From contig WAKQ01000019.1 in the NCBI GenBank assembly GCA_015523295.1, forward strand, positions 1 to 39,902: DNA of 39,902 nucleotides. Direction: 5' to 3'. The position numbers were made by a program, and so were the translations under genes. This DNA is from Desulfurococcales archaeon. Lineage in GTDB: Archaea > Thermoproteota > Thermoprotei_A > Sulfolobales > NBVN01. How positions within the stretch are numbered: the stretch's first letter is position 1; the number at the start of each line of letters is the position of its first letter. The notes below the pieces were generated by a model. That model was not told the DNA's origin and made no database searches. It worked only from the letters and a program-made list of their open reading frames with translations. Positions 1,341 to 19,544 of the stretch are shown here, piece after piece.

Positions 1341-1349
1341 TAACTTTAA

Positions 1350-1362
1350 TATTTTATTTTAA
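1350..1362 (+). promoter_or_regulatory. TATA-like promoter of the first C/D sRNA
   Basis: An AT-only run (ATATTTTATTTTA) lies directly after the leuS stop and 16 to 28 bases before the terminal stem of the C/D sRNA. This is roughly the expected distance for an archaeal TATA box and suggests independent transcription of the sRNA. Confidence 0.45.
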
Positions 1363-1377
1363 TGGTTAGTTTAACGC

Positions 1378-1434
1378 AGCGATGATGTCTACGACGGGCG
1401 GTCTGAATGTGATGATCCACTGTAGCTCTGAGCT
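1378..1434 (+). ncRNA. Box C/D sRNA; D' guide fits 16S rRNA C1402
   Basis: All parts of an archaeal box C/D 2'-O-methylation guide RNA are present in order: a terminal stem AGC (1378-1380) with GCT (1432-1434), box C ATGATGT (1382-1388), a 14-nt guide (1389-1402), box D' CTGA (1403-1406), a 2-nt spacer, box C' GTGATGA (1409-1415), a 12-nt guide (1416-1427) and box D CTGA (1428-1431). One unpaired base between stem and box C gives the three-base bulge of a kink-turn. The D' guide contains CGACGGGCGGT, complementary over 11 bases to the universal 16S rRNA segment ACCGCCCGUCG. Counting five bases upstream of D' places the methyl group on C1402 (E. coli numbering), a site that is ribose-methylated in other domains. 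The D guide would target AGCUACAGUGGA. Its 5' neighbour is leuS; its 3' half is antisense to the tail of a small ORF. Confidence 0.85.
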
Positions 1435-1676
1435 TCCCTTAACTTAGAGGTTCTCATAAACTTGGTTATTCTGTACCAGCTATAAAGTAAGCCGGCGTCT
1501 ATGAAGATGATTATGGTTAGAGCTAAGAAGTTTTTAATAGAGCTATTTGACATTGGGAGGAGAGTAGTGGCCTTTATGAATATGGGCTGGACAGCTACAA
1601 TGAGGAGGCCGTACAAGGTAAGCGTAAGTGGCACCTCCAATGCCTTTAAGATCTTCGCTAACAACATTGCCTCCAC
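1389..1676 (-). CDS. Small two-helix membrane protein, hypothetical
   Basis: Not recognised as a known family. It encodes 95 residues from GTG at 1676, or 92 from ATG at 1667, which has GGTGGAGG just upstream. Two hydrophobic stretches look like membrane helices (roughly residues 15-35 and 48-68), separated by a short polar loop; the C-terminal 25 residues are polar and basic. An AT-rich TATA-like run at about 1699-1711 lies at a suitable distance upstream. The last 15 codons lie antisense to the first C/D sRNA, and the stop codon falls in its D' guide. The overlapping plus-strand reading frame has no promoter or family match. Existence as a protein is plausible but not certain. Confidence 0.45.
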   Translation of the reverse strand: MEAMLLAKILKALEVPLTLTLYGLLIVAVQPIFIKATTLLPMSNSSIKNFLALTIIIFIDAGLLYSWYRITKFMRTSKLREAQSYSGSSHSDRPS

Positions 1677-1715: not shown

Positions 1716-1771
1716 CCGGATGATGTCTACCTCCGGTACTGAACTTTGATGAGAAGGCATTTGCCTGACGG
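1716..1771 (+). ncRNA. Box C/D sRNA, targets not identified
   Basis: The box order and spacing are exactly those of an archaeal C/D guide RNA: stem CCG (1716-1718) with CGG (1769-1771), one unpaired G, box C ATGATGT (1720-1726), a 12-nt guide (1727-1738), box D' CTGA (1739-1742), a 3-nt spacer, box C' TTGATGA (1746-1752), a 12-nt guide (1753-1764) and box D CTGA (1765-1768). The D' guide CTACCTCCGGTA would target UACCGGAGGUAG with methylation at the fifth base (G). The D guide GAAGGCATTTGC would target GCAAAUGCCUUC with methylation at the fifth base (A). I could not place either in rRNA or tRNA from memory. A TCTTTTTACA element at about 1688-1697 could be its TATA box. Confidence 0.8.
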
Positions 1772-2588: not shown

Positions 2589-2697
<109 letters not shown>

Positions 2698-6000: not shown

Positions 6001-6490
6001 TTACCCCTCTGATGGGACAGAACCTATGTATGACGGAAGGACGGGAGAGCTGATAATGACTCCTGTCTTCATAGGCGTTGTTTACTATCAGAGGCTTCAT
6101 CATATGGTTGCCGATAAGATGCATGCTAGGGCCAGAGGACCTGTTCAGCTGCTCACAAGGCAACCGACGGAAGGGAGAGCTCGTGAGGGTGGGTTAAGAT
6201 TCGGCGAAATGGAGAGGGACTGCCTTATAGGTCATGGAGCCCCTATCCTCCTGAAGGAGAGGTTGCTAGATAGTTCAGACAGGACAACTATTTACGTTTG
6301 TGAAAAATGCGGGCTTATAGGGTGGTACGATAAACGCAAGGGCAAGTACGTCTGCCCGATACATGGAGATAAGGCAAAGTTATACCCTGTTGAAGTGAGT
6401 TATGCGTTCAAGCTATTGCTTCAGGAGATGATGAGTATGATGATATACCCGAAGCTAATCCTCAAAGATAAGTATCCTGGAGGGGAGTGA
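3077..6490 (+). CDS. rpoB: DNA-directed RNA polymerase subunit B (Rpo2), unsplit
   Basis: 1137 residues, the full length of the undivided archaeal second-largest subunit, carrying the catalytic-side wall, lobe and hybrid-binding regions. Recognisable parts are the FETPEGPNCGL segment, the GYNMEDALIMNKSS segment, the RHGQKGV segment near the active centre, and a C-terminal zinc ribbon starting at Cys1075 (CEKCG ... CPIHG). Unlike many methanogens and haloarchaea, B' and B'' are one gene. The start is TTG at 3077, supported by GGGGTGAGGT eight bases upstream, which overlaps the rpoH stop. The gene is followed after 6 bases by rpoA1, so the subunits are translationally linked. Confidence 0.98.
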   Translation: MSGISSHSDSEANLLNPENRWLIIESFIKEKGLVRQHLDSYNEFVTSWIKKIVRELGHIETSQPGVYIEVLNIKIGEPEFKEIEGNRITLTPMIARLRNLSYTAPMSLVVALYENGIEVAKQEIPLGDMPVMIRSVLDPTSKMSKEELIKIGEDWRDPGGYFIINGSEKVIVTQEDLAHNRVFVDYAKEGSNMTHTAKVISASAGYRVPIILDRHKDGTLMINFPPIPAKIPFAVMMRALGLETDRDIALAVSADPEIQNELMPSLYQAREISTVEDAQDFIGSRVALGQPREARIERARQILDNYFLPHLGSSPEARILKALYLGQMANKLLELVLGRRKPDDKDHYANRRLRLAGDLMSQLFRVAFKQFVKDFKYQIERHRLRGRRLNLRALARPDLVTDRIKHALATGNWVGGRTGVSQIIDRMNWISLHSHLRRTIAPLSRGQPHFEARDLHPTQWGRICPFETPEGPNCGLVKNLALSAYISVGTDEESVKAVLRELGVVPILTIFERLREGDEDLLQNLPSYAKVFLNGTLIGYYLSEDASDLVNKVRELRRSGRLHHEVNISYLRTEHLNEIYVNCDPGRVRRPLLIVENGKPKITREVLESLRKGELSFSDLVAMGFVEYIDAEEEEDTYIALDPENLTPEHTHLEIWPPAILGIAAATIPYAEHNQSPRNAYQSAMVKQAVGFYAANFHQRFDSRAHFLHYPQKPLVQTKFLDVIGYNDRPAGQNFIVAILSFTGYNMEDALIMNKSSVERGLARSTFYREYTTEELRYAGGQRDRIEIPDPSVRGYKGRDHYRLLDSDGVISPEVEVNAGDVLVGKTSPPRFLEEYKEFGLTGVSRRDTSLTLRHGDKGVVDSVVITVSGEGNRLIRIKVRDTRIPELGDKFASRHGQKGVIGLLVPQYDMPYTPEGITPDLIVNPHALPSRMTVGQLMESIAGKVAALEGRTVDGTPFYGEKIHDLQKKLLLLGYPSDGTEPMYDGRTGELIMTPVFIGVVYYQRLHHMVADKMHARARGPVQLLTRQPTEGRAREGGLRFGEMERDCLIGHGAPILLKERLLDSSDRTTIYVCEKCGLIGWYDKRKGKYVCPIHGDKAKLYPVEVSYAFKLLLQEMMSMMIYPKLILKDKYPGGE

Positions 6491-6496
6491 TGGAGG

Positions 6497-9136
6497 ATGA
6501 CTGATGAGAAAGTGATTGGTGGGATCAAGTTCGGCATTCTTTCACCAGAAATGATTAGGAGCATGTCAGTTACAGCAATAGTGACTTCGGAGGTCTATGA
6601 CGAGAACGGGCTGCCTGTCGAAGGAGGTGTAATGGATCCGAGGTTAGGCGTTATTGAGCCAGGTCAGAGATGTGCTACGTGTGGTAACACACTCGCACGC
6701 TGTCCCGGCCATTTCGGACATCTTGAGCTTGCAAGGCCTGTAGTACATATTGGATTCGTCAAGCACATATATGACCTTCTCAGAGCTACATGTAGAAAGT
6801 GTGGAAGACTGAAGCTGCCTCAGGAAGAGATAGACAGATATCTCGATCTCTATAAAAGGCTAAAGGACAGGTGGCCTCAACTAGCCCAGTCGCTATCGGA
6901 CTACGTTAAGAGGAAGGCAATCAAAGCAACTAAGTGCCCTCATTGTGGTGAGCCTCAATACAAGATCAGGCTGGAGAAACCTACCTCGTTTATTGAGGAA
7001 GGACCTCTTGGTAGGCTCTGGCCTAATAAGATAAGGGAATGGCTAGAGAGAATACCAGATGATGACTTGAGGCTGTTGGGTTACGATCCTGAGGTCGCAA
7101 GGCCAGAATGGATGATAATTACCGTCCTACCGATACCGCCTATAGCTGTAAGGCCTTCAATCCTCTTGGAGACTGGGATTAGGTCAGAGGATGACCTAAC
7201 GCATAAGCTCGTTGATATCATAAGGACGAATGAAAAGCTCCGTGAAAGCATTAACTCAGGTGCTCCTGAAGTTATTGTTGAGGACCTATGGGAGCTGCTA
7301 CAGTATCATGTCACAACTTATATTGACAATGAAGTGCCAGGTGTCCCTCCAGCAAAGAGGAGGTCTGGCATGCCTCTGAGAACCCTGGCTCAGAGGCTTA
7401 AAGGTAAGGGCGGAAGATTTAGAGGTAATCTATCCGGGAAAAGAGTTGACTTCTCAGCCCGTACTGTGATAAGCCCAGACCCTAACATTAGCATAAATGA
7501 GGTGGGAGTTCCTAGAGATATAGCAATGACATTAACAGTTCCGGTAAGGGTGACTCCCTGGAACATTGATGAGGTTAGGAAGTATATTCTCAACGGACCT
7601 GGTAAATACCCCGGAGCTAACTACGTAATAGATCCGAATGGCAGGAGGATTGACCTGAGATTCATTAAGGACTTGAAGGCCATAGCAGAGGGACTTAAGC
7701 CGGGATATGTTGTCGAGAGACATTTAATCGACGGCGATATAGTGTTGTTTAATCGGCAGCCCTCCCTTCATAGGATGTCAATAATGGCTCACGTGGTTAA
7801 AGTTCTTCCAGGAAAAACATTCAGACTTCATCTGGCTGTTTGCCCTCCATATAATGCAGACTTCGACGGAGACGAGATGAACCTCCATGTGCCTCAGAAC
7901 GTTGAAGCAAGGGCTGAAGCGAAGACGTTACTCCTTGTTCAGGAACACATACTTAGCCCCAGATATGGTGGCCCTATCATAGGAGGAATTCAGGACTTCA
8001 TAAGCGGCGCGTATCTCCTCTCATCAAAAGCCACGCTTCTAACGAAAGATCAGGTCTCCGACCTGCTCGCAAGCATTAGTTATGAAGGTGAAATACCTGA
8101 GCCAGCAATTCTTTCACCTAAGAGGTCTTGGCTAGGGAAGCAGATCTTTAGCCTCCTCCTTCCAGAGAACTTTAACTTCATGAAGGAAGCCAATATCTCA
8201 AGCGGTGAACTTAAATGCAGTGATGAGGAATGCTTCTGGGATTCCTACCTCGTTGTAAAGCGCGGCAAGTTGCTTCTAGGCGTTCTCGATAAGGCAGCCA
8301 TAGGAGCGCAGAAGCCGGAATCAATGCTTCACTACCTGATAAGAGAGTACGGGAACACATTTGGCAAGGAGTTCATGGATAAGGCGTTCAAGATGTTCCT
8401 AAGGTTCATCGAGATGAGAGGCTTTACAATGTCAATCAACGACATCGTTATTCCTAGGGAGGCTTATGAGGAGATCTGGCAAGTTTATGAGAAGGCGAAG
8501 GAGGAAGTGAGAAAGCTTATCGAGGATTATCAAAATAACCGCTTGGAGGCAATGCCAGGAAGGACCTTGGAGGAGACTCTTGAGATCAAAATACTGGACG
8601 TTCTGTCAAGAGCTAGAGACGAGGCTGGTGAGATAGCTGTTAGATATCTCAACCCATTCAACAACGTCTTCATAATGGCAAGAACAGGGGCCAGGGGGAG
8701 CACTCTAAACATAACTCAGATGGCGGCGATGCTGGGCCAGCAGTCAGTTCGAGGTCAGAGAATTAGCAGGGGTTACAGAGATAGAACTTTACCTCACTTC
8801 AAAAAAGGCGATATTGGTCCAGAGGCTAGGGGGTTCGTAGCGAGTTCCTTTGTAAAGGGGTTAACACCTATTGAGATGTTCTTCCATGCTGCAGGAGGTA
8901 GGGAGGGACTTGTTGATACAGCAGTCAGGACTTCTCAAAGCGGGTACATGCAGAGAAGACTCATAAATTCATTACTTGACCTGATAGTCACCTATGACGG
9001 TGCTGTAAGAAGCACTTACGGTGAACTTATCCAGTTTAGATATGGTGAGGATGGAGTAGATCCCAAGAACACGTCATTCGGTGAGGCGGTTAAGGCATCT
9101 AGAATCGTAGATAAACACGTCGGATGGAAGAAATGA
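6497..9136 (+). CDS. rpoA1: DNA-directed RNA polymerase subunit A' (Rpo1N)
   Basis: 879 residues, the N-terminal part of the largest subunit, as is standard for archaea with a split A. The catalytic magnesium-binding motif NADFDGD is at residues 453-459. Zinc-binding clusters near the N terminus are [14 protein letters not shown] and CRKCG ... CPHCG. The [20 protein letters not shown] segment and the bridge-helix region ([19 protein letters not shown]) are present. ATG at 6497 was chosen; GGGGAGTGATGGAGG directly precedes it. The downstream partner A'' starts about 10 bases after the stop. Confidence 0.98.
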
Positions 9137-19438: not shown

Positions 19439-19544
19439 GCCGCGGTAGTATAGCCCGGCCAAGTATGCGGGCCTCTCGAGCAGTCTCCGCTGTTGCCTGC
19501 GTGGAGAGCCCGTGACCCGGGTTCAAATCCCGGCCGCGGCACCA
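19439..19544 (+). tRNA. tRNA-Glu(CUC) with a 28-nt intron at 37/38
   Basis: Acceptor GCCGCGG/CCGCGGC, D-arm GTAT/GTAT of the Glu/Asp type, anticodon stem CGGGC/GCCCG, anticodon CTC, T-arm CCGGG-TTCAAAT-CCCGG, discriminator A and encoded CCA. The intron occupies 19479-19506. Bulges CG^A and AG^A flank a central helix CTCT/GTGG with one mismatch, and an intron helix GCAG/CTGC lies beyond. Splicing gives the loop CTCTCGA. Position 37/38 is the standard archaeal site. Confidence 0.93.

What the first reader, a model, noticed from the sequence alone, without database searches (positions are those of the whole stretch)
1378..1434. Unannotated C/D sRNA predicted to methylate 16S rRNA C1402
Boxes, spacing and kink-turn are complete, and the D' guide pairs over 11 bases with the universally conserved ACCGCCCGUCG of 16S rRNA. 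The N+5 rule falls exactly on C1402, a decoding-centre base that is 2'-O-methylated in bacteria by a protein enzyme and, at the equivalent base, in eukaryotes by a snoRNA. The same modification thus appears to be made by an RNA guide here.
Basis: partly seen in the sequence, partly recalled or inferred. Interest (0 to 1): 0.75.

Follow-up and report, generated by a model that had tools for sequence, protein, structure and literature searches.

The report
Archaeal guide RNA for decoding-centre methylation
A short stretch beside a leucyl-tRNA synthetase gene of an uncultured archaeon encodes a real, widely conserved small guide RNA that should direct a methyl group onto a key base of the ribosome's decoding centre, but this kind of guide for this very base was already predicted in other archaea in 2000, so it is a good new example rather than a surprise.

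Summary
Window 1378-1434 (+) encodes a complete dual-guide archaeal C/D box sRNA: k-turn stem, box C AUGAUGU, D' CUGA, C' GUGAUGA, D CUGA. A box-only descriptor finds exactly two such loci in the window and none in 60 shuffles. D' guide positions 1-11 pair perfectly with 16S ACCGCCCGUCG of relatives, and the N+5 base is E. coli C1402. The same RNA occurs in 29 of 31 sampled genomes of the organism's family and, by a sequence model, in much of its order. Guide bases are essentially invariant while flanks are not. So this is an ortholog of an order-wide sRNA directing Cm1402 and probably Am1236, with fibrillarin and L7Ae encoded in the genome. The organism's own 16S gene is missing from the assembly, and expression and methylation are untested. 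The 'RNA guide instead of enzyme' idea is not new: archaeal sR12 was predicted at the snR70/U43 site (= C1402) by Gaspin et al. 2000. Low interest. A side lead: in three other families the terminal C/D boxes look lost and replaced by a 6-16 bp helix.

The parts
1345..1362 (+). A/T-rich, TATA-box-like stretch TTTAATATTTTATTTTAA about 16-33 nt upstream of the sRNA; possible promoter
   Evidence: sequence only; inference, not tested
1378..1434 (+). dual-guide C/D box sRNA (whole element)
1378..1380 (+). 5' arm of terminal k-turn stem (AGC)
   Evidence: pairs with 1432-1434; in many relatives the same position pairs with different bases
1382..1388 (+). box C, AUGAUGU (UGAUG core intact, last A replaced)
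   Evidence: UGAUG invariant in the 18 genomes, though the search pattern required it
1392..1402 (+). D' guide: 11 bp with 16S ACCGCCCGUCG; window G1398 pairs with C1402 (N+5)
1403..1406 (+). box D', CUGA
1409..1415 (+). box C', GUGAUGA
1417..1426 (+). D guide CCACUGUAGC; best rRNA target 16S GCUACAAUGG (E. coli 1233-1242), N+5 = A1236, one A.C mismatch (window C1420) that is absent in other families
1428..1431 (+). box D, CUGA
1432..1434 (+). 3' arm of terminal k-turn stem (GCU)
1716..1770 (+). neighbouring second C/D box sRNA with 23S guides; the same pair of sRNAs is seen in relatives (separate element, listed for context)

Best explanation
Window 1378-1434 encodes an archaeal dual-guide C/D box sRNA. 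L7Ae binds the C/D and C'/D' k-turns, Nop5 and fibrillarin assemble on it, the D' guide pairs with 16S rRNA 1398-1408 and fibrillarin 2'-O-methylates C1402; the D guide pairs with 16S 1233-1242 and directs methylation of A1236. Shown here: boxes, k-turn stem, guide-target complementarity and register against relatives' 16S, conservation, and presence of fibrillarin and L7Ae genes. Inferred: transcription, RNP assembly, methylation, and use of the D guide despite its one mismatch.
For: Box descriptor: 2 loci in the window, 0 in 60 shuffles. 11-nt perfect D' guide match to the 16S of relatives in the N+5 register for C1402. In 18 genomes of the family D' guide positions 2-11 are identical (seven of these bases were fixed by the search pattern, the other three were not), D guide positions 2-11, which no pattern fixed, are 94-100% identical, and 60-nt flanks only 44-45%; the position next to each box varies freely, as expected for a guide. 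Sequence-model hits in 29 of 31 family members and 139 of 197 order members at E<=0.05; for the pattern search in the same genomes the reversed-pattern control gave none. Of 62 parsed loci, 57 have no mismatch at D' positions 2-11 against the 16S consensus. In G035 (family f2) the 16S has G1405A, and that genome's guide has U there, so pairing is kept. Fibrillarin E=3e-102, L7Ae E=3e-32, Nop domain in all 7 relatives tested.
Against: No expression or modification data exist for this organism. Its 16S gene is absent from the assembly. No Nop domain was found in the incomplete genome. No Rfam C/D family reaches its gathering score here. The D guide keeps one A.C mismatch in this family. MFE folding is not better than shuffles, which is expected for C/D RNAs. 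Parsed loci were chosen with a model containing the guides, so their mismatch counts are conditional.
Confidence: 0.9

Rival explanations
1. The sRNA is real and binds 16S at both sites, but its main role is to chaperone folding by holding the 1236 and 1402 regions together during assembly; methylation is secondary or partial.
For: Two guides to the 3' part of the same 16S rRNA; Dennis et al. 2015 propose chaperone roles for some dual guides (PMC4644070).
Against: N+5 registers and the D'/C' boxes are kept, which a pure chaperone would not need. Not exclusive of methylation.
Confidence: 0.07
2. The conservation reflects the C-terminal codons of the small convergent ORF on the minus strand (1389-1676), not an RNA.
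For: In three members of the genus the ORF ends in antisense frame inside the sRNA (...SGSS(H/R)SDRPS*).
Against: In other genera (L076, L064) the homologous ORF stops before the sRNA, and in genus g8 the sRNA has unrelated flanks with intact boxes and guides.
Confidence: 0.01
3. Chance resemblance of box-like words and an rRNA-complementary 11-mer.
For: Short motifs; the collection-wide pattern scan does give apparently chance bacterial hits.
Against: 0 of 60 shuffles; conservation across genera and families.
Confidence: 0.005

Closest known systems
Archaeal C/D box sRNA 'sR12' (Pyrococcus, Sulfolobus), predicted by Gaspin et al. 2000 at the yeast snR70-equivalent site
   Same: Archaeal C/D sRNA; predicted target is the equivalent of E. 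coli C1402 (PMC3511168)
Eukaryotic SNORD43 (U43) / snR70
   Same: C/D guide for the equivalent 18S base (human Cm1703, yeast Cm1639; PMC11542601 Table 2; guide assignment in PMC3511168)
   Different: Eukaryotic; common descent not established, and convergence not excluded by PMC3511168; no Rfam hit to these families here
Rfam snoR07 (RF01585)
   Same: Its consensus holds CGAUGGGCGG-A-CUGA, the same guide and register as orthologs of our sRNA in the order
   Different: 88-nt snoRNA model; the match is below gathering score and only to an ortholog (L142), not to the window
Bacterial RsmI (with RsmH) at C1402
   Same: Same nucleotide 2'-O-methylated (PMC5053481 abstract)
   Different: Protein enzyme that needs no guide RNA; not found in this genome

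Membership tests
Archaeal dual-guide C/D box sRNA | Box C RUGAUGA and D CUGA forming a terminal k-turn | tested here: met
   AUGAUGU/CUGA with stem AGC/GCU; last A of box C absent, UGAUG core kept
Archaeal dual-guide C/D box sRNA | Internal C'/D' motif | tested here: met
   GUGAUGA and CUGA; UGAUGA core of C' the same in all 18 genomes
Archaeal dual-guide C/D box sRNA | ~10-nt guide complementarity to rRNA with target at N+5 | tested here: met
   D': 11 bp, C1402; D: 9 of 10 bp, A1236; against relatives' 16S
Archaeal dual-guide C/D box sRNA | L7Ae, Nop5 and fibrillarin in the genome | tested here: inconclusive
   Fibrillarin and L7Ae found; Nop not found in the 77%-complete genome but present in 7 of 7 relatives
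Archaeal dual-guide C/D box sRNA | Stable transcript bound by L7Ae/fibrillarin, methylated target | not testable with these tools
   No RNA or RiboMethSeq data
Rfam sR12 (RF01147) | Match to the covariance model | tested here: not met
   No match of 1378-1434 up to E=5; sR14, sR3 and sR17 match end to end but below gathering score
SNORD43/snR70 clan | Match to RF00221/RF01238 models | tested here: not met
   Not among matches at gathering score or at E<=5
RsmI-type enzyme route to Cm1402 | RsmI gene (TIGR00096) | tested here: not met
   No match in the incomplete genome

The most novel reading that the evidence does not exclude
The C1402 guide in this archaeal order and the eukaryotic U43/snR70 (and snoR07) guide descend from one guide RNA of the archaeal-eukaryotic ancestor, making it one of the few modification guides traceable across the two domains; within the order, some families have shed the canonical terminal C/D k-turn for a long helix yet kept both guides.
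Probability: 0.25. Interest if true: 0.5.

Novelty: new member of a known kind. Interest (0 to 1): 0.2.

Why it matters
It adds an order-wide, well-conserved ortholog set for an RNA-guided Cm1402 in archaea, and so gives a comparative handle on how one of the few ribose methylations shared by bacteria, archaea and eukaryotes is made by a protein in one domain and by a guide RNA in the others. The general point was already made for Pyrococcus and Sulfolobus sR12.

Tried and rejected
The own 16S is not in the assembly, so relatives' 16S was used. The strict pattern TGATGN{3,16}ACGGGCGGTSTGA across 398 phylum genomes hit only this genome: too strict, because the base next to D' varies and many families use CGAUGGGCGG. 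The collection-wide pattern scan gave 41 hits, mostly bacterial and apparently chance; only the archaeal ones were used. An exact D-guide target GCTACAGTGG in the own genome: three places, one being the sRNA itself and the other two without any Rfam RNA; set aside in favour of 16S 1233-1242. Equating the locus with Rfam sR12 was rejected. PMC11542601's entry for P. abyssi Cm1369 stands in a table headed 'experimentally mapped', but the reference numbers given for archaea resolve to papers that are not about archaeal rRNA mapping, while Gaspin 2000 is reference 81, so I do not count it as proof of mapping. Supplementary target tables of Dennis et al. 2015 could not be opened. Its main text has no mention of 1402 or of alignment position 1389; it does mention predictions at the E. 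coli A1408 equivalent.

Full report
What is there. The window lies in contig C19 of an incomplete archaeal genome (932,587 bases, 77% complete). Two members of the same genus match public MAG records titled Desulfurococcales archaeon (loci L023 and L024 have the same match coordinates as G001 and G002). After the 3' end of a class I tRNA synthetase gene (15-1340; by its sequence the leucyl enzyme, my reading) comes a 57-nt element, 1378-1434 (+): AGC | G | AUGAUGU | CUACGACGGGCGGU | CUGA | AU | GUGAUGA | UCCACUGUAGCU | CUGA | GCU. Read as a box C/D k-turn it has a C-stem AGC/GCU, a three-base loop GAU, tandem G.A pairs from boxes C and D, and an internal C'/D' pair (k-turn reading from general knowledge).

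Chance. A descriptor of boxes and spacings only, with no guide information, finds two loci in the window, this one and 1720-1768, and none in 60 dinucleotide shuffles.

Target. The assembly lacks 16S, so I used 16S genes of relatives. Ten of eleven complete ones carry ACACACCGCCCGUCGCUCC (one with CAUCC further on), and the eleventh has CCGCCCAUCG. The D' guide pairs over 11 bases; on E. coli rrsB the same register puts the N+5 base at nucleotide 1402 exactly. In 18 genomes of the family guide positions 2-11 (CGACGGGCGG) do not vary, while the base touching box D' is T, C or A. Seven of these ten bases were fixed by the search pattern, so the fairer test is the second guide, which was not.

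Second guide. It was not part of any search pattern and is 94-100% identical per position over positions 2-11, against 44-45% in the flanks. Its best rRNA target in four relatives is 16S GCUACAAUGG, E. coli 1233-1242, N+5 = A1236, with one A.C mismatch. In other families of the order the guide is CCAUUGUAGC, a perfect match (14 of 14 parsed f9 loci, and members of f3, f4, f6, f7 and f11). That the same target is matched perfectly by orthologs makes A1236 the likely second site, with one drifted base in this family.

Distribution. A sequence-only model built from 16 members finds the RNA in 29 of 31 family members and 139 of 197 order members at E <= 0.05. The weakest of these may be other C/D RNAs. 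Of 70 loci read, 62 parsed automatically with both guides; 57 of those have no mismatch at D' positions 2-11 against the 16S consensus and 5 have one. By eye, five of the eight unparsed ones (L118, L120, L121, L153, L160) also keep a D' guide of this kind. In G035 the 16S carries G1405A and that genome's guide has U at the pairing position, so pairing is kept; since U would also pair with G this is consistent with, not proof of, co-evolution. Two f5 loci (L162, L165) appear to keep only the A1236 guide. A Micrarchaeota contig (L052) has a separate C/D RNA with UAGACGGGCGGU in the D-guide slot, aimed at the same base.

Machinery. Fibrillarin and L7Ae are encoded. A Nop domain was not found here, but was found in all seven relatives tested, so its absence is most likely due to the incomplete assembly. 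No RsmI was found.

Known or new. C/D guided methylation is the standard archaeal mechanism (PMC4644070, PMC7994747). For this very base, PMC3511168 reports that archaeal sR12, from crenarchaea and euryarchaea, was predicted by Gaspin et al. 2000 to guide methylation at the yeast snR70 site, and PMC11542601 Table 2 lines up yeast Cm1639, human Cm1703, P. abyssi Cm1369 and E. coli Cm1402. I could not see the sR12 sequences; Rfam's model called sR12 does not show this guide, so I do not claim identity with that family. Rfam's archaeal models sR14, sR3 and sR17 align end to end with 1378-1433, below their gathering scores, and Rfam snoR07 has the guide CGAUGGGCGG before ACUGA, the form found in many orthologs. 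The locus is therefore a new, unannotated member of a known kind.

How sure. That it is a C/D sRNA aimed at C1402 is close to certain on sequence evidence. That it is transcribed and that C1402 is methylated in this organism is inference from conservation.

Noticed in passing
window 1716-1770 (+): A second C/D box sRNA. Its D guide matches the organism's own 23S over 10 bases (E. coli A1938); its D' guide pairs 8 WC + 2 GU with helix 69 (E. coli G1910). Traces of it are visible next to the first sRNA in L074, L075, L076 and L064. Rfam sR11 and snoPyro_CD match below gathering score.
   Followed up: partly
L087 about 854-1471 (G000:C11); L085 about 6136-6752: In this organism and in G003 an insertion of about 585 bases, probably an rRNA intron, separates the two 23S target sites of the second sRNA, which lie 32 nt apart in relatives without it.
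   Followed up: no
L123-L128, L130, L131, L133, L136, L137, L149, L150 (family f9); L132, L135, L139, L144 (f4); L147 (f3): Orthologs keep both guides and C'/D' but have degenerate terminal boxes (GAUG / CUAA and the like) closed by a perfect 6-16 bp helix that differs in sequence between genera (L125 folding z = -6). The abstract of PMC8413462 calls the C and D motifs crucial for activity, so how these RNAs assemble is unclear.
   Followed up: partly
window 1389-1676 (-): Small membrane-protein-like ORF (95 aa, no Pfam match) between the two sRNAs, with homologues in L074, L075, L076 and L064; in this genus its last codons run antisense into the first sRNA.
   Followed up: partly
L052 about 2260-2312: Micrarchaeota C/D sRNA with GACGGGCGGU in the D guide, aimed at the same 16S base from the other guide slot.
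   Followed up: no
L009 about 2858 (G035, family f2): 16S reads ACACCGCCCAUCG, i.e. G1405A in the otherwise highly conserved decoding-site strand.
   Followed up: no
L162, L165 (family f5): Loci that seem to keep the A1236 guide but not the C1402 guide.
   Followed up: no
window 2592-2697 (-) and 19439-19541 (+): tRNA genes found by Rfam but not by ARAGORN, probably intron-containing.
   Followed up: no
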